This document shows positions 3,987 through 18,685 of a DNA stretch of 18,870 nt, in pieces (the first letter of the stretch is position 1; each line of letters opens with the position of its first letter). Where the stretch lies: NCBI GenBank assembly GCA_900553815.1, contig USEY01000063.1, positions 1-18,870 on the forward strand. The letters run 5' to 3'. Source of the DNA: an uncultured Bacteroides sp. (GTDB taxonomy: Bacteria > Bacteroidota > Bacteroidia > Bacteroidales > Bacteroidaceae). A model generated the notes under the pieces. The model was not told the DNA's origin, did no database searches, and worked only from the letters and a program-made list of their open reading frames with translations. Made by a program: the position numbers and the translations under genes.

Positions 3987-5195
3987 ATGAAACTCTATAT
4001 ATTCAATCCTGATACCGACATGGCTCTTGCCTCCCGGGAAGAGAACTACATGGCACCGGCACTTATCAGGTGTATGGCCGAGGATATGGCCGTATTTCCT
4101 GTCTGGTATGCCACTGATTCGTCTTTGGTTTTGGCTCCTTCGGCCTATAACATTGATTTCCTGAAGCAGATGCAGACACTGTTCTCTCTGGACGTACAGA
4201 TTGTTACCGAAGTGGAATTACCCGAGTACGCTCATGTGCAGCCTGTACCTTGGGGCTGGAACATGGCCTTGTGTCGGCGTCTGTTCAAGGGAGGAATTTT
4301 TGCCGGACGGCTGCCTGCTGCCGGATGGCTGGAGGCGTATCGCCGGTGGGCTTCCCGTCGCAATGCGGTTGATGTCCTGCAGTCTTTGGTCGGTTCGGAT
4401 GGCATAAAAGATTGCCAAGGCAGTTCTCTGTGGTTGACGGATATCGAGGCTTGCCACAATGCAACCTTGGCAATGAACGGTCATTGTGTGTTCAAAGCTC
4501 CCTGGTCGGGCAGTGGGAAAGGCTTGCTTTGGTGTCGCGACGGGTTTGCATTCAGTGCAAGGAAGTGGTGCGAGCGAGTCTTAAGAGAACAGCAGGGCAT
4601 TGTGGCAGAACCTATATATAATAAGGTATTGGATTTTGCCATGGAGTTTTATTCATCAGGACAGGGTGAAGTGGCGTTCAGGGGATATTCTCTGTTCGAA
4701 ACCAACAGCAGGGGAGCCTATCAGCGTAATCTGCTCTTGCCGGCATCTGCCATCGAGGACAGAATCGCCGGTTTTGTCTCCTTGCTTACATTGATACGTG
4801 TGCGCGAGCGTTTGCAGGAAAAACTTTGCCAGCTATATGGCTCTGTCTATGAAGGTTTCCTGGGAGTGGATATGATGGTCTGTCGCGACATGCATGGTTC
4901 ATTCTTTGTGCATCCCTGTGTCGAAATCAATTTGCGCATGAACATGGGTGTCGTTTCGCTGATTTTCTTTGAACGTTTCATGCATCCATCCTCTACCGGA
5001 TATTTTTCCGTCAGTTATTATGCTTCCAACGAAGAATTGCAGCGTGAACATGCTTCCGACCAGCGTATGCACCCGCTTGTTGTTAGCAATGGCCGCTTGG
5101 TGTCCGGCTATTTGCCACTGGTACCGGTCACTCCCCGGAGCCGTTACCGGGCTTATGTAGTAGCGGCTACTCCGTCGTCTGCTCCAGTTGAATAG
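3987..5195 (+). CDS. ATP-grasp-like protein of unknown substrate
   Basis: A 402-residue soluble protein with no signal peptide. I do not recognise a named family, but the layout resembles an ATP-grasp ligase. There is an N-terminal domain starting KLYIFNPDTDMALAS. A glycine-rich loop with a lysine, FKAPWSGSGKGL, lies at residues 169-180, with an acidic hinge-like AEP at 207-209. GFLGVDMMV (290-298) precedes EINLRMNMG (313-321), where E313, N315 and R317 match the E-x-N-x-R metal/phosphate motif of ATP-grasp enzymes. Such enzymes join a carboxylate to an amine or thiol through an acyl-phosphate; the substrate cannot be read from the sequence. The gene has its own promoter and no co-directional neighbour. 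Its last 29 bases overlap the 3' end of the opposing glycosidase gene. Coding status is firm; the ATP-grasp call is an inference from motifs. Confidence 0.82.
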   Translation: MKLYIFNPDTDMALASREENYMAPALIRCMAEDMAVFPVWYATDSSLVLAPSAYNIDFLKQMQTLFSLDVQIVTEVELPEYAHVQPVPWGWNMALCRRLFKGGIFAGRLPAAGWLEAYRRWASRRNAVDVLQSLVGSDGIKDCQGSSLWLTDIEACHNATLAMNGHCVFKAPWSGSGKGLLWCRDGFAFSARKWCERVLREQQGIVAEPIYNKVLDFAMEFYSSGQGEVAFRGYSLFETNSRGAYQRNLLLPASAIEDRIAGFVSLLTLIRVRERLQEKLCQLYGSVYEGFLGVDMMVCRDMHGSFFVHPCVEINLRMNMGVVSLIFFERFMHPSSTGYFSVSYYASNEELQREHASDQRMHPLVVSNGRLVSGYLPLVPVTPRSRYRAYVVAATPSSAPVE

Positions 5196-6660
5196 CCTGG
5201 CTTTCGTTGCCACACCGGTCTATGGCGCTGACGGCAAAATACCTGTAGTCCAGCCAGGGCATCATCGGTATGTAAGTATAGGTGTTGCCTTCAACACGCT
5301 GGGCCACGATGTTTTCCGGGTTATTGGTATCCACCGGATAAGTGTCCGAAGCATAGACAACATAGGTAGGAGCGTTGCGCTTGTCATTGTCTGTAGCCGG
5401 TTCCCAGCTCAGAGTGGTAAATCCGTCTCTGTTGTCTTTGCTTAACTTCAGTTGCCGGGGGCGGGTAGGGGCTATGCTGTCTATCCATGTCATGGGCGGT
5501 TGCAGGGCCGGAGCGGTGTAGTACTTTTCTTCCAGCAGGTCACAGAGGTTTTGTGTATTGTCTATCAGGTATTTTACCCGGTAGTGTGCCTGTCCGTCCA
5601 GTCCGTGTGCCCGGGTGAAGTTCAGCTGGCGTTCCACCTCATCCGTATCCCAGTTGCCTTCGTCAGGGTGCAGAAAGTAAATGCCTATGCCGGGAATCAC
5701 CTGTCTACCGTTGCTTTGTTCCTTCCAGTCCAGTGCAAAAGGATAGAAGCTGTTTCCCCTGAAGTACATCATCGGATATATCTGGTCTTGTATGCCTTCA
5801 CCCAACCATCCCTGTACATCCTGGAATACGACATCGAAAGCATTCCATCCGCGTGACGAGTAGCGCGAGGTGTCTTTGTATTTTCCTACCGGGCAGGTGC
5901 TCACCTTGACCCAAGGTTTTAAAGCCTTTACACCTTTATATATATAGCGGACAATTTCCGTCAGATTGTCGCGTCGCCACTGTTCCAGGCTGCGACCTTT
6001 GCGATACTTCTTGAAGTAGTAGCTGTCCGGAAACTTATAGGCACGTTCCGGATAGCGCAGGTAGTCAAAATGTACCCCGTCCACGTCATAGCGTTCCACC
6101 ACTTCTTTCACCAGCTCCATCAGGTATTCCTTGGTATGTGGATTTCCCGGATTCAGGAAATATTCCCGTTTGTAAGGAACACAGATGTCCGGGTGGCGTT
6201 TGGTCACCGATTTATTTCCCAGTGCAGCCACGTGTTTTCTGTTACCCAGTGGTATGGTGACCATCCAGGCATGGCATTCCATGTCCCGCTTATGGCATTC
6301 TTCGATGGCAAAGGCCAGCGGGTCATATCCCGGGTCTTTACCGGTGGTCCCGGTCAGGATGGAGTTGAAGGGTTCTATGTCCGACCGGTAGAGCACATCT
6401 CCTCTGGTACGTGTCTGAAACAGGACCGTATTGAAATTGGCCGCTTTCAGTCGGTCCAGTATTTCCACCAGTTCGGCCTTTTGCTTCTTGATGCCCTCTT
6501 GGGTCGTAGCCCTGGTGCGAGGCCAGTCCAGTCCGTACACAGCGGTCACCCATGCCGCTCTCACTTCATATTTTGGGGGGTGTGCCATGCTGCCAAGTGT
6601 GCAGAGCAGCAACAACACCATGCACATCCCTGTCCTTATATTGCTCAGCTTATTTCTCAT
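5167..6660 (-). CDS. Secreted DUF187/GHL10 family glycoside hydrolase (DigH-like), paralogue 1
   Basis: A 497-residue exported hydrolase of the glycosyl hydrolase-like 10 family (PF02638). The characterised E. coli member DigH cleaves peptidoglycan glycan strands stripped of stem peptides, so a cell-envelope role is likely but not proven here. Seen: signal peptide (RNKLSNIRTG, then the hydrophobic MCMVLLLLCTLGSMA, cleavage near SMA-HP); a TIM-barrel domain beginning YEVRAAWVTAVYGLDWP; IEECHKRDMECHAW; the strand motif DVDGVHFDYLRYP (residues 192-204); and a fibronectin-III-like C-terminal domain from about DSIAPTRPRQLKL. The frame opens further up at a TTG (6690), but ATG 6660 gives a canonical signal peptide and is preferred. 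It has HAWMVTIPLGN where paralogue 2 has HAWINPYRV, so substrate details may differ. The stop lies inside the opposing gene. Confidence 0.92.
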   Translation of the reverse strand: MRNKLSNIRTGMCMVLLLLCTLGSMAHPPKYEVRAAWVTAVYGLDWPRTRATTQEGIKKQKAELVEILDRLKAANFNTVLFQTRTRGDVLYRSDIEPFNSILTGTTGKDPGYDPLAFAIEECHKRDMECHAWMVTIPLGNRKHVAALGNKSVTKRHPDICVPYKREYFLNPGNPHTKEYLMELVKEVVERYDVDGVHFDYLRYPERAYKFPDSYYFKKYRKGRSLEQWRRDNLTEIVRYIYKGVKALKPWVKVSTCPVGKYKDTSRYSSRGWNAFDVVFQDVQGWLGEGIQDQIYPMMYFRGNSFYPFALDWKEQSNGRQVIPGIGIYFLHPDEGNWDTDEVERQLNFTRAHGLDGQAHYRVKYLIDNTQNLCDLLEEKYYTAPALQPPMTWIDSIAPTRPRQLKLSKDNRDGFTTLSWEPATDNDKRNAPTYVVYASDTYPVDTNNPENIVAQRVEGNTYTYIPMMPWLDYRYFAVSAIDRCGNESQAIQLEQTTE

Positions 6661-6700
6661 CCTATTGTTTTCCAAGTTGCATGATTTCAAAAAACAGAGG

Positions 6701-12921: not shown

Positions 12922-14433
12922 TCACAATTTCACCTTCTTGCTCACCGACTTCGACTCATTATGCAGTCTGTCCAGTGCCGTTATCACGTAGCGATACTTC
13001 GTCTTACCGTCCTCGTATGGCAGTTTATAGAATGTATTGCGGGTGATGGCTACAATGTGTGTGGCGTCGTCAATGTCTACCTCCTCCTTGTTCTCAAACC
13101 GGTAGACTACATACTGTACGGCCCTGTCCATTTCCTCCTTGTATTTCGGTGCCGTCCAGAACAGGATATATCCGTCTTCCGTCCATATCGGTTTCACCTT
13201 GCGCACCTTGCCAGGTGCCTTGTCGTCTATGAAGTCAAATACAGGCGGTATGGCCGGATACTTATGATATTCCTGCATCAGCGCATCCTTATACTTTCCC
13301 TTGTTCTCCACCACTGCGCTGGCCGGCCATTGGCAACTGCCCTCTATCGTCTGGTAGGCCCGTTGCAGTGCCATCTTGCGCGGCAGCTGGTTCATGTTCG
13401 GATTCTTCGGGTCAGCATTCTCCACTGTGTTCATCACCGACTGGCCTATGAACAGCGGCCTGTTCTCCGTATTCTTGGCCCACCAGTGAATCAGCGTCTC
13501 ATAGTCGGCCACCCGGTGACCAATCTGCCAGTACAGCTGCGGAATGTTGTAGTCGATCCACCCTTCGCGTGCCCACAGCAGCACGTCGGCATACAGGTCG
13601 TCGTAGTTCTCCAGTCCGTTCGTTTTGCTTCCCAGCGGATAGCTGCTCTCGTTGCGGTAGATGCCGAAGGGCGACACGCCAAACTTCACCCACGGCTTGA
13701 TTTTTCTCACCGTCTCGTGTATCTCCCTTATCAGCGTGTTCACGTTGCTGCGTCGCCAGTCACCCCGGTTGTCAAACCCGCCGCCATAGCGCGCAAAGCT
13801 CTCGTCATCCGGAAACTCCTGTCCTTTGACAGGATAGGGGTAGAAGTAGTCGTCCATGTGTATGGCGTCCACGTCATAGTGCATCACGATGTCGCTCACC
13901 ACCATCCGTATGTGTCGGCGGCTTTCCGGCAGGGCAGGGTCAAAGAACAGCTGGTTGCCATACTGTATAAACCATTCCGGGTGGGTGTTATATACATGTT
14001 CAGGTGCCAGCTCATTCTTCAGGTTCGTCTTCACCCTGTACGGGTTTATCCACGCATGAAACTCCATGCCCCTCTTGTGGCATTCCTCTATCATGAACGC
14101 CATCGGGTCCCAGAACGGTTCGGGTGCCTTGCCCTGCACGCCGGTCAGGAATCGGCTCCATGGTTCTATCTGCGAAGCATACAGTGCGTCAGCTTCCGGT
14201 CTTACCTGAAAGATGATGGCATTGATGCCCGCTTCCTGCAAGGCATTCAGCTGGTCTATTAAGTTTTTCTTCATCTTCTCCGTAGGCATCCCTTTGAACT
14301 GTCCGTTCACCGTCTGTATCCATGCCCCTCTGAATTCACGTTTCGGGTAGCGTTTGGCTGTTTCCTGTTGCGCCCACAGCAGGCAAGGCAGCAGGCACGC
14401 CAATATCCCCAGTAACATTTTTCTTGATGTCAT
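12922..14433 (-). CDS. Secreted DUF187/GHL10 family glycoside hydrolase (DigH-like), paralogue 2
   Basis: A 503-residue exported hydrolase of the GHL10/DUF187 family, paralogous to the one at 5167-6660. The family's known role (E. coli DigH) is cleavage of denuded peptidoglycan glycans; the substrate here is inferred only. Seen: signal peptide MTSRKMLLGILACLLPCLLWAQ; barrel start FRGAWIQTVNGQF (34-46); INAIIFQVRPEADALY (70-85); IEECHKRGMEFHAWINPYRV (115-134); the strand motif DVDAIHMDDYFYPYP (187-201) with its acidic pair; WVKFGVSPFGIYRN; and a fibronectin-III-like C-terminal domain from about FIDDKAPGKVRKV. It keeps the usual HAWINPYR motif. ATG 14433 is about 19 nt downstream of the predicted transcription start. 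uvrA follows on the same strand. Confidence 0.93.
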   Translation of the reverse strand: MTSRKMLLGILACLLPCLLWAQQETAKRYPKREFRGAWIQTVNGQFKGMPTEKMKKNLIDQLNALQEAGINAIIFQVRPEADALYASQIEPWSRFLTGVQGKAPEPFWDPMAFMIEECHKRGMEFHAWINPYRVKTNLKNELAPEHVYNTHPEWFIQYGNQLFFDPALPESRRHIRMVVSDIVMHYDVDAIHMDDYFYPYPVKGQEFPDDESFARYGGGFDNRGDWRRSNVNTLIREIHETVRKIKPWVKFGVSPFGIYRNESSYPLGSKTNGLENYDDLYADVLLWAREGWIDYNIPQLYWQIGHRVADYETLIHWWAKNTENRPLFIGQSVMNTVENADPKNPNMNQLPRKMALQRAYQTIEGSCQWPASAVVENKGKYKDALMQEYHKYPAIPPVFDFIDDKAPGKVRKVKPIWTEDGYILFWTAPKYKEEMDRAVQYVVYRFENKEEVDIDDATHIVAITRNTFYKLPYEDGKTKYRYVITALDRLHNESKSVSKKVKL

Positions 14434-14458
14434 ATCTTCAGTCTTTAAAATAATGTGG

Positions 14459-14490
14459 CAAAGATAGTGAAAGGTGAGCGCAGAGGCAAA
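14459..14490 (-). promoter_or_regulatory. Bacteroides-type promoter for DUF187 paralogue 2 (and perhaps uvrA)
   Basis: Minus-strand TTTG (14490-14487), a 20-nt spacer and TATCTTTG (14466-14459) match the consensus exactly. The predicted start near 14455 gives a leader of about 22 nt. The -7 box is identical to that of the ATPase gene at 3736. Confidence 0.78.
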
Positions 14491-14579
14491 CGGAAAACAA
14501 AGTTTTCAGCGTTTGACTATGCCGAACCGCCTCCTAGCTTATTTAAAGATAGTGCAAACTGAGTGAAGTACAAAGATGA

Positions 14580-15400
14580 AAAGATTTTTTGGACGCGGAT
14601 TGCGCGGATTAACGCGGATTCTGAAAATTCATGCAAGCTTAGTAGAGACGTGGCGTGCCGCGTCTAGAAATATCCAGTACGAAACAGTTGATAGCCAGCA
14701 TATTCAATACAGACCATATACGGAGACGGAGCACGCCCCGTCTCTACTAGGTTTACCATTTATCGCAGGCGTCGTAGTCATTAACCAGAATACACATTAC
14801 TGACCACTGAATTACATCCGTCCCATCTGCGTCATCCGCGTGCCATCATTGATTCACCTTTTAACTCCTTAGACGGAGCACGTCCCGTTTAGTTCCCGCA
14901 TCAAGTGCGGGATGACGGTCTAATGACCGTCGGCTGCGCAGTGGATGTCCTTCAAGCTGCCCCCATAGTCTAAACTCAAAAACTCATCAACTCAAAAACT
15001 CAAATTCACTTTCCTCGTCCACTTGTCAACTGAAATAATCCGTGTTATCCGCGCAATCCGCGCCTAAAAAAACATCTGTCACTCATCCCATTATACGTAT
15101 CCCTCCGGATGGTCATCCCGGCCTTGAGCCGGGAACTAAAAACACGATAGTGGGATGAACTTAAGTTCCCGCATCAAGTGCAGGATGACTATGCAGACGA
15201 TAGAAAAATTGCAATCAATCCGCGTTCATCCACCCCATCTGTGTCATCAGTGTGCAGTTAAATCTGAAATCTAAAAAATCCGCGTCATCTGCGTCTAAAA
15301 AAACAATAACCACTCACCACTTATCACTCACCACTAATCACTCTCAACCCTCCACCCTCAGTTTTTCACTCTCATCACTCACCACTAAATAGCGTCTTCT
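14580..15400. repeat. Gene-free cluster of dispersed palindromes and low-complexity repeats
   Basis: No convincing gene. Hairpins seen: AGACGTGGC-GT-GCCGCGTCT (14646-14665, one G-T pair); GAGACGG...CCGTCTC (14723-14744); CCCGCA-TCAAG-TGCGGG (14895-14911); GACGGTC-TAAT-GACCGTC (14914-14931); TCCCGGC-CTTGA-GCCGGGA (15116-15134); and CCCGCA...TGCAGG (15168-15184). Between them are ACGCGGATTGCGCGGATT-like words (14593-14621, 15037-15064, 15280-15300) and ACTCACCACTAATCACTC-like text (15310-15390). The hairpins could stop transcription entering from either side. Confidence 0.75.
15037..15061 (-). repeat. Left copy of a 25-bp inverted repeat flanking the promoter region
   Basis: On the minus strand this reads GCGGATTGCGCGGATAACAC followed by GGATT; the copy at 16012-16036 on the plus strand differs at one base. 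Similarity continues imperfectly for another ~25 bp (ATTTCAG, TTGAC, GACGAG words) in both copies. Confidence 0.75.
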
Positions 15401-15482
15401 GACTTGCAAATCATGTTCTAAAATGTAATGAATAACGAAAGTGATTGCATGTGTGTATGTTGCTTGGAATGTGCTGATATAT

Positions 15483-15502
15483 TGTCTTTTAAACGTTCAT
15501 TT
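15483..15502 (+). repeat. Left inverted repeat (IRL) of the invertible promoter segment
   Basis: TGTCTTTTAAACGTTCATTT. Its inverted partner at 15690-15709 reads TGTTTTTTAAACGTTCGTTT on the minus strand: 18 of 20 positions agree. The core AAACGTTCAT is one base off the ARACGTWCGT motif I recall for the Mpi-inverted capsule promoters of B. fragilis. Confidence 0.82.
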
Positions 15503-15650
15503 TAAAATTATTCAACTTTTAAAATATAAATGTTTTTCGTTTTTATTTTCGCCTTTTTTATCGTCTGTATTTACACTCAAAAACATTCCATTCAGCAACA
15601 AGATATTAAAGAGAACCCTTGCATTAAAAATATTTTATTTCGCCTTTTAT

Positions 15651-15681
15651 TTTGTTATGTCATTTCTTAATCGTAAATTTG
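15651..15681 (+). promoter_or_regulatory. Capsule locus promoter inside the invertible segment
   Basis: TTTG (15651-15654), a 19-nt spacer and TAAATTTG (15674-15681) match the Bacteroides consensus exactly. Transcription would start near 15685-15690, at the inner edge of the right inverted repeat, and run towards upxY. I saw no equally good promoter facing the other way inside the segment. Confidence 0.85.
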
Positions 15682-15689
15682 TGCCCATT

Positions 15690-15709
15690 AAACGAACGTT
15701 TAAAAAACA
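15690..15709 (-). repeat. Right inverted repeat (IRR) of the invertible promoter segment
   Basis: On the minus strand this reads TGTTTTTTAAACGTTCGTTT and contains AAACGTTCGT, an exact match to the recalled ARACGTWCGT core. It sits directly downstream of the promoter -7 box. Confidence 0.82.
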
Positions 15710-15814
15710 CTTTTGTGTATTCTATGCGCTCGTAATCAGCCTGTTAGGCCGCCTAAAACAAAATAACTGTTTCATTGCTCTTTTTCTGGGATAGTAGGGA
15801 GTCATTGAGATAAT

Positions 15815-15910
15815 ATGAATGCATATAAATTGTTGAAAACAATAGCATTACATGAATTGACCGGAAGTAATATCACTACTACGGTGTCCCCAAAAAACAT
15901 CCTTTTCTGA
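15815..15910 (+). CDS. Possible 31-residue leader ORF
   Basis: ATG AAT GCA TAT ... TGA encodes a 31-residue peptide (MNAYKLLKTIALHELTGS at its start) in the capsule leader. It is not similar to anything I know. It could be a leader peptide, a remnant, or chance; the support is only an open frame in transcribed DNA. Confidence 0.15.
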   Translation: MNAYKLLKTIALHELTGSNITTTVSPKNILF

Positions 15911-16011
15911 AGGCAAATTTTAGAGTTCAGATTCTAGATTTCAGATTTTAGAGTTCAGGGTTCAGAGTCTGGGGTTGATACTTGATATCGGTCTTTTCTG
16001 ATTCAGTAGAC

Positions 16012-16036
16012 GCGGATTGCGCGGATAACACAGATT
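16012..16036 (+). repeat. Right copy of the 25-bp inverted repeat flanking the promoter region
   Basis: GCGGATTGCGCGGATAACAC followed by AGATT; inverted relative to 15037-15061, 24 of 25 bases identical. The two copies bracket about 950 bp that include the invertible promoter. Confidence 0.75.
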
Positions 16037-16102
16037 TATTTCAGGTTGACGAGTTGACAAGAGACGAGTTGACAAGGAACGGGATTTTAATTTTAGATAA
16101 AT

Positions 16103-16224
16103 CTCTCCACTCTCAACTCAAATATAACTCTCAATTCTCCCCTCTCCACTCTCAACTCAGAAAGCTCTCCACTCTCAATTCTCAACTTAGGAAACTCTCA
16201 ATTCTCCCCTCTCAACTCTCAACT
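16103..16224 (+). repeat. CT-rich CTCTCAACTC-like array before upxY
   Basis: About 120 bp of degenerate tandem CTCTCAACTC / CTCTCCACT / CTCAATTCTCC words, almost free of G on the plus strand, end 9 bp before the upxY ATG. A shorter array of the same words precedes upxZ. Confidence 0.8.
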
Positions 16225-16232
16225 ATTATTAT

Positions 16233-16778
16233 ATGCTCCACTGGTATGCCCTTCGCGTCACCTATAGCCGCGAACTGGCCTTAAAAGAATATTTGGATAC
16301 TCAGCACATCGAGAGTTTCATCCCGATGCACTACGAATATATGGAGAAAGACGGCCGTCGCCTGCGCAAGCTTGTTCCAGCCGTCCACAACCTGGTCTTC
16401 GTCCATTCCACCCGTGCCCGCATCGATGCCCTCAAAGACGAGGCCGGCATGCGCATCCCCATCCGCTACATCATGGACCGTGCCAACCACGCCCCCATCA
16501 TTATCCCCGATGCCCAGATGCGCAGCTTCATCCTTGTGGCCGGTTCCTACGAAGAAGCCATTCTCTACGTTGAGCCGGCCGAGCTTCAACTTGTCAAAGG
16601 TCAGCGTGTACGCATCACCGGCGGCATCTTCGAAGGTGTTGTCGGCGAGTTCGTCCGCATCCGTCGCGACCGTCGGGTAGTGGTCAACATCGAAGGCGTC
16701 ATGGCTGTCGCCACCACCTTCATCCATTCCTCGCTGGTCCAACCGCTCGAAGAAGAAAATAATAGTAATGGTAAATGA
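16233..16778 (+). CDS. upxY: UpxY-family transcription antiterminator (NusG-like)
   Basis: A 181-residue NusG paralogue of the UpxY family, first gene of Bacteroides capsular polysaccharide operons. UpxY proteins ride with RNA polymerase and prevent early termination in the leader of their own operon. Seen: N-terminal NGN domain starting HWYALRVTYSRELALKEYL (residues 3-21), IESFIPMHYEYM, and the conserved LVPAVHNLVFVHST (47-60); then a C-terminal KOW domain, VKGQRVRITGGIFEGVVGEF (121-140), ending VATTFIHSSLVQPLEE. ATG 16233 lies where family N-termini begin. No Shine-Dalgarno; a CT-rich array sits just upstream. The unusually long 378-bp repeat-filled gap to upxZ follows. Confidence 0.95.
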   Translation: MLHWYALRVTYSRELALKEYLDTQHIESFIPMHYEYMEKDGRRLRKLVPAVHNLVFVHSTRARIDALKDEAGMRIPIRYIMDRANHAPIIIPDAQMRSFILVAGSYEEAILYVEPAELQLVKGQRVRITGGIFEGVVGEFVRIRRDRRVVVNIEGVMAVATTFIHSSLVQPLEEENNSNGK

Positions 16779-17779: not shown

Positions 17780-18685
17780 ATGAAAGGCATCGTTTTAGCC
17801 GGTGGCAGTGGTACCCGTCTGTACCCCATCACCAAAGGAATCAGCAAACAGCTCATTCCCATTTTCGATAAACCCATGATTTATTACCCCATTTCGGTGT
17901 TGATGCTGGCCGGCATCCGCGAGATACTGATTATCTCCACCCCTTACGACCTGCCCAGTTTCAAACGCCTGTTGGGTGATGGTTCCGACTTCGGTGTGCG
18001 TTTTGAGTATGCCGAGCAGCCTAGTCCTGACGGACTGGCACAGGCTTTTATCATTGGTGAGCAGTTCATTGGCAATGACTCAGTATGCCTGGTCTTGGGC
18101 GACAATATTTTCTATGGTTCCTATTTCACAACTATGCTGAAGCGTGCTGTTCGCGAGGCCGAGGACAACGGAAATGCCACCGTCTTTGGCTATTGGGTCA
18201 GCGACCCCGAACGTTACGGTGTTGCCGAGTTTGATAAAGAAGGCAACTGCTTGAGCATAGAAGAGAAACCGCAGCATCCCAAGTCCAATTATGCGGTAGT
18301 GGGGCTGTACTTCTATCCGAACAAGGTGGTGGATGTAGCGAAGCATATCAAACCGTCAGCACGTGGGGAACTGGAGATAACTACCGTCAATCAGGAATTC
18401 CTGCAGGCCGGTCAGCTCAAGGTACAGACCTTAGGGCGTGGCTTTGCCTGGCTCGATACCGGTACGCACGACTCATTGAGCGAAGCATCAACCTTTATCG
18501 AAGTCATCGAGAAACGTCAGGGCTTGAAAGTGGCGTGTCTGGAAGGCATTGCTCTTCGTCAGGGCTGGATAACGGCAGAGAAGATGCGTGAACTGGCTCA
18601 ACCTATGCTGAAGAATCAGTATGGGCAGTATTTGTTGCAGGTGATAGATGAGTTGGAAAGGACCGAGAAGTCTAATCTTTGTTAA
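17780..18685 (+). CDS. rfbA: Glucose-1-phosphate thymidylyltransferase
   Basis: A 301-residue RmlA: dTTP + glucose-1-phosphate to dTDP-glucose + PPi, first step of dTDP-sugar (for example dTDP-L-rhamnose) synthesis for the capsule. Family length is about 290. Seen: nucleotide-binding loop [13 protein letters not shown] (6-18), [17 protein letters not shown] (22-38), [12 protein letters not shown] (79-90), metal-binding LGDNIFYG (106-113), [27 protein letters not shown] (160-179), [11 protein letters not shown] (195-205) and [10 protein letters not shown] (224-233). The start is fixed by [14 protein letters not shown], the standard N-terminus. Third gene of the upx operon, 161 bp after upxZ, followed after 145 bp by the rmlB start. 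Confidence 0.96.

What the first reader, a model, noticed from the sequence alone, without database searches (positions are those of the whole stretch)
15483..15709. Phase-variable promoter switch in front of an upxY-upxZ capsule locus, in the ON orientation
Two 20-bp inverted repeats (18/20 match) with an AAACGTTCRT core enclose 187 bp. A perfect promoter (TTTG-N19-TAAATTTG) inside faces upxY and ends 8 bp before the right repeat. Size, core and gene order match the Mpi-controlled capsule promoters of B. fragilis. The switch is not an annotated gene and is easily missed.
Basis: partly seen in the sequence, partly recalled or inferred. Interest (0 to 1): 0.8.

Follow-up and report, generated by a model that had tools for sequence, protein, structure and literature searches.

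The report
Flippable promoter switch for capsule genes
This stretch of a gut Bacteroides genome is an on/off DNA switch, a short promoter between two mirror-image repeats that can flip to turn a capsule gene cluster on or off; it is a good new example of a well-known kind, followed by a conserved RNA-hairpin leader.

Summary
Confirmed. Two 20-nt arms (18/20) at 15483-15502 and 15690-15709 enclose 187 nt; a promoter match (15651-15681) faces upxY, upxZ and rfbA. Sister Bacteroides loci carry the same switch: of 44 loci with this leader, 27 have the repeat pair, 8 with the promoter towards upxY, 13 away, 6 without a strict promoter match. One orthologous locus is flipped between close genomes: segment 97.6% identical inverted, 55.5% direct. 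An Mpi-family invertase clade occurs in 21 of 119 genomes; 20 of these have paired repeats, against 4 of the other 98. The window's own genome is not held, so its invertase and actual inversion were not tested.

Beyond the finding, the leader (15706-15911) holds two covarying hairpins and a GUCCCC box. It has no Rfam match, stands also before upxY genes without the repeat pair, and its class follows UpxY lineage. I read it as the pause and loading site for UpxY, a mechanism recalled from Saba et al. 2024, which I could not read. Verdict: new member of a known kind.

The parts
15483..15502 (+). Left (distal) inverted-repeat arm; site dyad TTAAACG-TT-CATTTTA at 15489-15504, central TT at 15496-15497
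   Evidence: inner half departs from consensus
15651..15681 (+). Promoter, TTTG (15651-15654) N19 TAAATTTG (15674-15681), facing upxY (ON)
   Evidence: consensus TAnnTTTG quoted in PMC3090145 passages
15690..15709 (-). Right (proximal) inverted-repeat arm; site dyad at 15688-15703, central dinucleotide at 15695-15696; transcription start expected here by analogy
   Evidence: start site by analogy with B. intestinalis (PMC8375218 passages)
15496..15696 (.). Segment expected to invert, taken between the central dinucleotides of the two sites
   Evidence: inferred; relatives' segments of the same size are flipped between close genomes
15706..15911 (+). Conserved upxY leader element (class I)
15781..15799 (+). 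Leader hairpin 1 (CTGYGATAG tip)
   Evidence: RNAalifold on 41 leaders, pair counts
15860..15885 (+). Leader hairpin 2 (ACCGG...CCGGT type)
   Evidence: also in the single-sequence fold
15886..15902 (+). GTCCCC box directly after hairpin 2
   Evidence: conserved columns; related box in class II leaders by eye
15912..16232 (+). Extra leader stretch made of repeat-rich intergenic sequence, not seen in relatives
   Evidence: box-to-UpxY 341 nt against 23-153 nt in 46 other class I loci; repeat pair
16233..16778 (+). upxY, NusG-like antiterminator
   Evidence: PF02357, NF033644
17157..17618 (+). upxZ, antagonist of non-cognate UpxY
   Evidence: PF06603; function from the family description and PMC7315117 passages
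17780..18685 (+). rfbA, glucose-1-phosphate thymidylyltransferase, next gene of the operon
   Evidence: TIGR01207 above its cut-off

Best explanation
An invertible promoter of the Mpi-controlled Bacteroides capsule type, assembled here in the ON orientation. A serine invertase of the Mpi family would act at the two TTAAACG-TT-CGTTTAA-like sites and flip the segment between their central dinucleotides. ON: transcription starts at the right arm and runs through the leader into upxY, upxZ, rfbA and the capsule operon beyond. OFF: the promoter points away from upxY. A second gate lies downstream: at the leader hairpins and GUCCCC box UpxY most likely loads on a paused polymerase and lets it pass termination in the leader, while UpxZ of this locus blocks other UpxYs. 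Shown: sites, promoter match, genes, both orientations in sister loci, invertase-repeat association, covarying hairpins. Inferred: inversion in this strain, the acting enzyme, the start site, and the role of hairpins and box.
For: Arms and core; gene order; 8 ON and 13 OFF among 27 paired-repeat loci; flipped orthologue L042 against L043 and L044; invertase clade at 64% identity or more in 21 of 119 genomes, 20 with paired repeats, against 4 of 98 others; Mpi name from NCBIfam; identical central dinucleotides in both arms of credible site pairs; known 183-186 bp promoters with the same core in B. intestinalis (PMC8375218 passages).
Against: No genome held for the window: invertase, further sites and reads untested. 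The left site has a degenerate inner half, and no held genome has the same locus for comparison (best DNA match in 158 genus genomes 85% over 141 nt). The reversed control pattern hits 9 of 119 genomes, so single pattern hits are not proof. G039 has the invertase clade without a strict repeat pair. A serine recombinase of another clade (L106) also passes the Mpi model, and its association with repeats was not tested. The window's leader alone is not unusually stable (z 0.34, 128 of 200 shuffles fold as well).
Confidence: 0.9

Rival explanations
1. A decayed, locked-ON switch: the degenerate inner half of the left site (CATTTTA for CGTTTAA) has lowered or abolished recombination, leaving a fixed promoter.
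For: Left arm deviates. Six relatives (L056, L074, L075, L076, L078, L080) keep a proximal site and a promoter towards upxY but have no credible distal site, so such locking seems to occur.
Against: Both central dinucleotides are TT and the outer halves are intact. L161 carries a related CGTTCATTTAA form in both arms, and several other paired sites deviate in their inner halves.
Confidence: 0.12
2. The segment is inverted by a tyrosine recombinase and not by an Mpi-type serine invertase.
For: Other Bacteroides capsule promoters are: a 289-bp class with a different repeat stands by a tyrosine-type invertase in B. xylanisolvens (PMC12118408 passages). Upstream regions of many class III loci carry a GTTACTTCTTAGGTAACGGA repeat with mostly 193-256 nt between arms; its recombinase was not looked up here.
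Against: The window's core and size are those of the Mpi class; the repeats track a serine invertase clade; arms share their central dinucleotide.
Confidence: 0.04
3. The conserved leader mainly encodes a short regulatory peptide (15815-15910, 31 codons) and not a pause or loading signal.
For: The frame is open for at least 15 codons from hairpin 2 onward in 41 of 41 aligned leaders, and 30 of 41 have an ATG in frame, in the window despite a 1-nt gap.
Against: Synonymous excess is not specific to that frame: observed/expected 838/581.4 in frame 0 and 677/458.2 in frame 2 for 20 loci. L050 and L051 shift the frame inside the hairpin while keeping it; 11 of 41 lack an ATG in frame. Pairing is kept by compensatory changes.
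Confidence: 0.1
4. The repeat pair is a chance feature of AT-rich intergenic DNA.
For: 2 of 1000 shuffles give an equal pair, and another 18/20 pair lies in the window.
Against: Same sites, spacing, promoter geometry and gene order in sister loci, with inversion seen between genomes.
Confidence: 0.01

Closest known systems
Mpi-controlled invertible capsule promoters of Bacteroides fragilis (Krinos 2001, Coyne 2003: recalled, seen only as references) and PVR7-12 of B. intestinalis (PMC8375218, passages)
   Same: Core (ARACGTTCGTN / GTTCGTTTAA), size (183-186 bp there, 187 nt between arms here), promoter next to the proximal repeat, capsule operon downstream.
   Different: Left arm inner half degenerate; leader longer by a repeat-rich stretch; inversion and invertase not shown in this strain.
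UpxY-UpxZ capsule regulation (Chatzidaki-Livanis 2009, 2010: seen only through citing papers; Saba et al. 2024: recalled, not held)
   Same: UpxY and UpxZ as first genes; a leader in which UpxY is said to prevent termination; hairpins in the leader.
   Different: Leader classes defined here by comparison only; no pausing or binding data.
Tyrosine-recombinase capsule invertons (B. xylanisolvens, PMC12118408 passages)
   Same: Invertible promoter in front of upxY.
   Different: Other repeat, larger segment (289-290 bp), other recombinase family.
LoaP and RfaH leader elements (dfn hairpin, ops; PMC12691694 and PMC7819879 passages)
   Same: NusG paralog acting through a cis element in the 5' leader; hairpin-dependent for LoaP.
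   Different: The window's UpxY scores far below the LoaP and RfaH cut-offs (20.3 against 125; 25.6 against 144.5). No UNCG loop or ops sequence was sought.

Membership tests
Mpi-type invertible capsule promoter | Inverted repeats with ARACGTTCGTN core | tested here: met
   Right arm matches; left arm has one departure (AAACGTTCAT)
Mpi-type invertible capsule promoter | Segment of about 185-190 bp with an outward promoter beside one arm | tested here: met
   187 nt between arms; promoter ends 8 nt before the right arm
Mpi-type invertible capsule promoter | Both orientations observed | tested here: inconclusive
   Shown for sister loci, one orthologous locus flipped; not for this locus
Mpi-type invertible capsule promoter | Mpi-family serine invertase in the same genome | not testable with these tools
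   No genome held; association shown in 119 genus genomes
UpxY-UpxZ capsule locus | upxY then upxZ as first genes, polysaccharide genes after | tested here: met
   the window ends soon after rfbA, so the rest of the locus is unseen
UpxY leader pause/loading element | Conserved hairpins in the leader upstream of upxY | tested here: met
   8 of 16 pairs with changes on both sides, 94.8% of cells paired; 42 of 44 loci followed by UpxY
UpxY leader pause/loading element | Polymerase pausing and UpxY binding at the element | not testable with these tools
   Needs transcription assays

The most novel reading that the evidence does not exclude
The leader is a modular address tag. Each UpxY lineage carries its own hairpin and box (class I ACCGG-hairpin with GUCCCCAAAGAAUAUCC; class II UUGAA-hairpin with a CCCC..GGAACACCC-like box; class IV CGGUUUG-hairpin with CGAAGCGCACCCG), covarying in structure and co-inherited with the UpxY clade. 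Reading the leader would then predict which UpxY, and which UpxZ blockade, governs a Bacteroides capsule locus, whether or not its promoter is invertible.
Probability: 0.45. Interest if true: 0.55.

Novelty: new member of a known kind. Interest (0 to 1): 0.35.

Why it matters
It adds a well-supported capsule phase switch in a Bacteroides lineage with no close genome held here, and shows that the switch sits on top of a conserved leader gate that persists where the promoter is not flanked by repeats. Class-specific leaders would make the rule of one UpxY per operon open to direct test in reporters.

Tried and rejected
Chance repeat: rejected (and sister loci). Leader peptide as main explanation: not favoured but not excluded. 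Known RNA family: none at gathering scores in the window and L001-L008 (weaker thresholds not tried). The window's own species: no close match in the 119-genome draw (best 78% in the GHL10 region) or in the 158 genus genomes held. Text search for the core in papers was useless (231 papers, the 30 listed unrelated). Family-wide search with the structured model R2: 2 of 151 genomes, one being G003 itself (stricter filters, weak relatives may be lost). In 100 other upxY loci R2 gave 5 matches at E up to 1, four of them clear (L162, L159, L218, L203); L162 and L218 are places already matched by R1. Class III 'leader' similarity is partly UpxY N-terminal coding sequence by my reading, so it is not used as evidence. 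The agreement of classes with the UpxY tree (5 changes, least possible 4, shuffled mean 78.7) is also what co-inheritance of linked DNA gives; class models were seeded by eye, the class I branch has support 0, and one locus (L055/L162) is in the set twice. One search reported no UpxY for L079 because of an indexing slip of mine; one search found it.

Full report
Observation. The two arms and the 187-nt interval are present as described; 2 of 1000 dinucleotide shuffles of 15400-15799 held an inverted pair as good at 100-300 nt spacing. The A[AG]ACGTTC[AG]T core occurs only at these two places in the window, in opposite senses. The promoter match at 15651-15681 faces right; three other matches to the loose promoter pattern occur in the window, so its placement counts more than the motif. 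upxY, upxZ and rfbA follow.

Sister loci. A scan of one genome per species with the window's UpxY gave ten loci, eight of them in Bacteroides at 71-74% identity. Upstream of upxY the Bacteroides loci carry the same kind of repeat (only one arm where the contig starts close by), with the promoter towards upxY in L003, L004 and L006 and away in L002, L005 and L007. A sequence-only leader model (R1) gave 46 matches in 20 of 119 genus genomes. I analysed 45 of these rows, that is 44 loci (one locus has two rows; G093:C54 was left out at that step). Of the 44, 27 have the repeat pair: 8 with the promoter towards upxY, 13 away, 6 without a strict promoter match. Of the 17 without a pair, four (L038, L058, L073, L079) end at a contig edge and L077 holds masked bases. 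The strongest single item is an orthologous locus in close genomes: L042 against L043, left flank 96.7%, leader 99.0%, intervening segment 55.5% identical direct and 97.6% inverted; L042 against L044 is alike. So this kind of segment does flip in this group.

Enzyme. Serine recombinases are widespread (PF00239 in 75 of 119), so I followed one clade. A member with 64% identity or more to the G003 protein occurs in 21 of 119 genomes; three more genomes match only at 54-56%. Paired CGTTCGTT...AACGAACG sites occur in 24 of 119: 20 of the 21, and G008, G026, G068 and G112 among the other 98; G039 has the clade without a pair. The reversed control pattern hits 9 of 119. Of four recombinases scanned, three pass NCBIfam's Mpi equivalog: L105 and L104 of this clade and L106 of another, so the name alone does not single out the enzyme. 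Among 120 listed homologues, seven of the eight with an NCBI name are called master DNA invertase Mpi family.

Site anatomy. Read as a dyad, the consensus is TTAAACG-TT-CGTTTAA. A scan for the best site pair at class I, II and IV loci gave 62 rows. I set aside eight whose partner is not credible (L056, L074, L075, L076, L078, L080, L081, L159). In the other 54 the central dinucleotide is the same in both arms: TT in 51, TA in two, AT in one. With all 62 rows: TT/TT 55, TA/TT 3, TA/TA 2, AT/AT 1, AC/TT 1. Matching overlaps are what a serine recombinase with a 2-bp overlap would demand; that link is my inference from general knowledge. The window, too far from its upxY to be in that scan, has TT in both arms and 183 nt between dyads, but a degenerate inner half on the left. 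Six relatives keep a proximal site and a promoter towards upxY but no credible distal site; they look like locked-ON remnants.

Leader. From the right arm to 20 nt past the box, the window and eight sister leaders measure 204-207 nt. Rfam has no match at gathering scores. On 41 aligned leaders (the window, L004, L005 and 38 of the 44 loci; two identical rows and four truncated, masked or weak ones left out) RNAalifold predicts two hairpins. Of 16 pairs 8 show changes on both sides and 94.8% of cells pair; 0 of 500 shuffles reach these values (further pair types: 3 of 500), and slid versions drop to 44-57% paired. The tool warns that related sequences can exceed shuffles without structure. Against: the window's leader alone is not unusually stable (z 0.34). 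42 of the 44 loci have UpxY directly downstream; the misses are L054 and L082. The leader also stands before upxY genes without a repeat pair, so it belongs to UpxY rather than to the inversion.

Leader classes. I fetched 100 further upxY places chosen by me from the matches listed, not at random. With 42 leader loci and the window these make 143 rows (L162 repeats L055): class I 47, II 25, III 41, IV 11, other 19. Classes II and IV have their own hairpins with compensatory changes (3 of 13 and 3 of 11 predicted pairs) and their own boxes by eye. On a quick UpxY tree of 142 rows the classes need 5 changes where 4 is the least possible. Co-inheritance of linked DNA explains this as well as functional matching does.

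What the window adds. Its box-to-UpxY distance is 341 nt, against 23-153 nt in the other 46 class I rows. The extra stretch is repeat-rich; one 30-nt piece (16007-16036) is an inverted copy (93%) of 15037-15066.

Mechanism and prior work. PMC8375218 (passages) describes 183-186 bp invertible promoters with GTTCGTTTAA repeats in B. intestinalis, their overlap with the Mpi repeat, and a start inside the proximal repeat. PMC7819879 and PMC7315117 (passages) state that UpxY prevents premature termination in the leader; PMC7593976 (passages) in 2020 calls the recruitment of operon-encoded NusG paralogs unknown. Saba et al. 2024, cited in PMC12691694 (passages) for UpxY contacts with upstream duplex DNA, is not held. 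From memory, its abstract reports UpxY recognising paused polymerase with help from nascent RNA hairpins, which fits the leader here, so I claim no new mechanism. Searches whose listings showed no paper on class-specific upxY leaders; the library lacks most subscription papers.

Noticed in passing
15815-15910 (+): 31-codon open frame (MNAYKLLKTIALHELTGSNITTTVSPKNILF) inside the conserved leader; the frame is open in relatives too, but frame-specific selection was not shown.
   Followed up: partly
15037-15066 and 16007-16036: A 30-nt dispersed repeat in inverted orientation (93%) on both sides of the switch and leader, 940 nt apart; similar pieces occur elsewhere in the window.
   Followed up: partly
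12922-14433 (-) and 14434-15482: In the OFF orientation the promoter would point at the GHL10-type gene (PF02638) in its sense direction, about 1 kb away; whether OFF transcripts reach it is unknown.
   Followed up: no
5167-6690 (-) and 12922-14433 (-): Two GHL10-type glycosyl-hydrolase-like genes (PF02638) in one window.
   Followed up: no
L056, L074, L075, L076, L078, L080: upxY loci with a proximal Mpi-type site and a promoter towards upxY but no credible distal site: likely locked-ON switches.
   Followed up: partly
L126, L145, L071: Paired sites whose central dinucleotide is TA (L126, L145) or AT (L071) in both arms instead of TT; both are self-complementary, which might loosen the inversion-only rule.
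   Followed up: no
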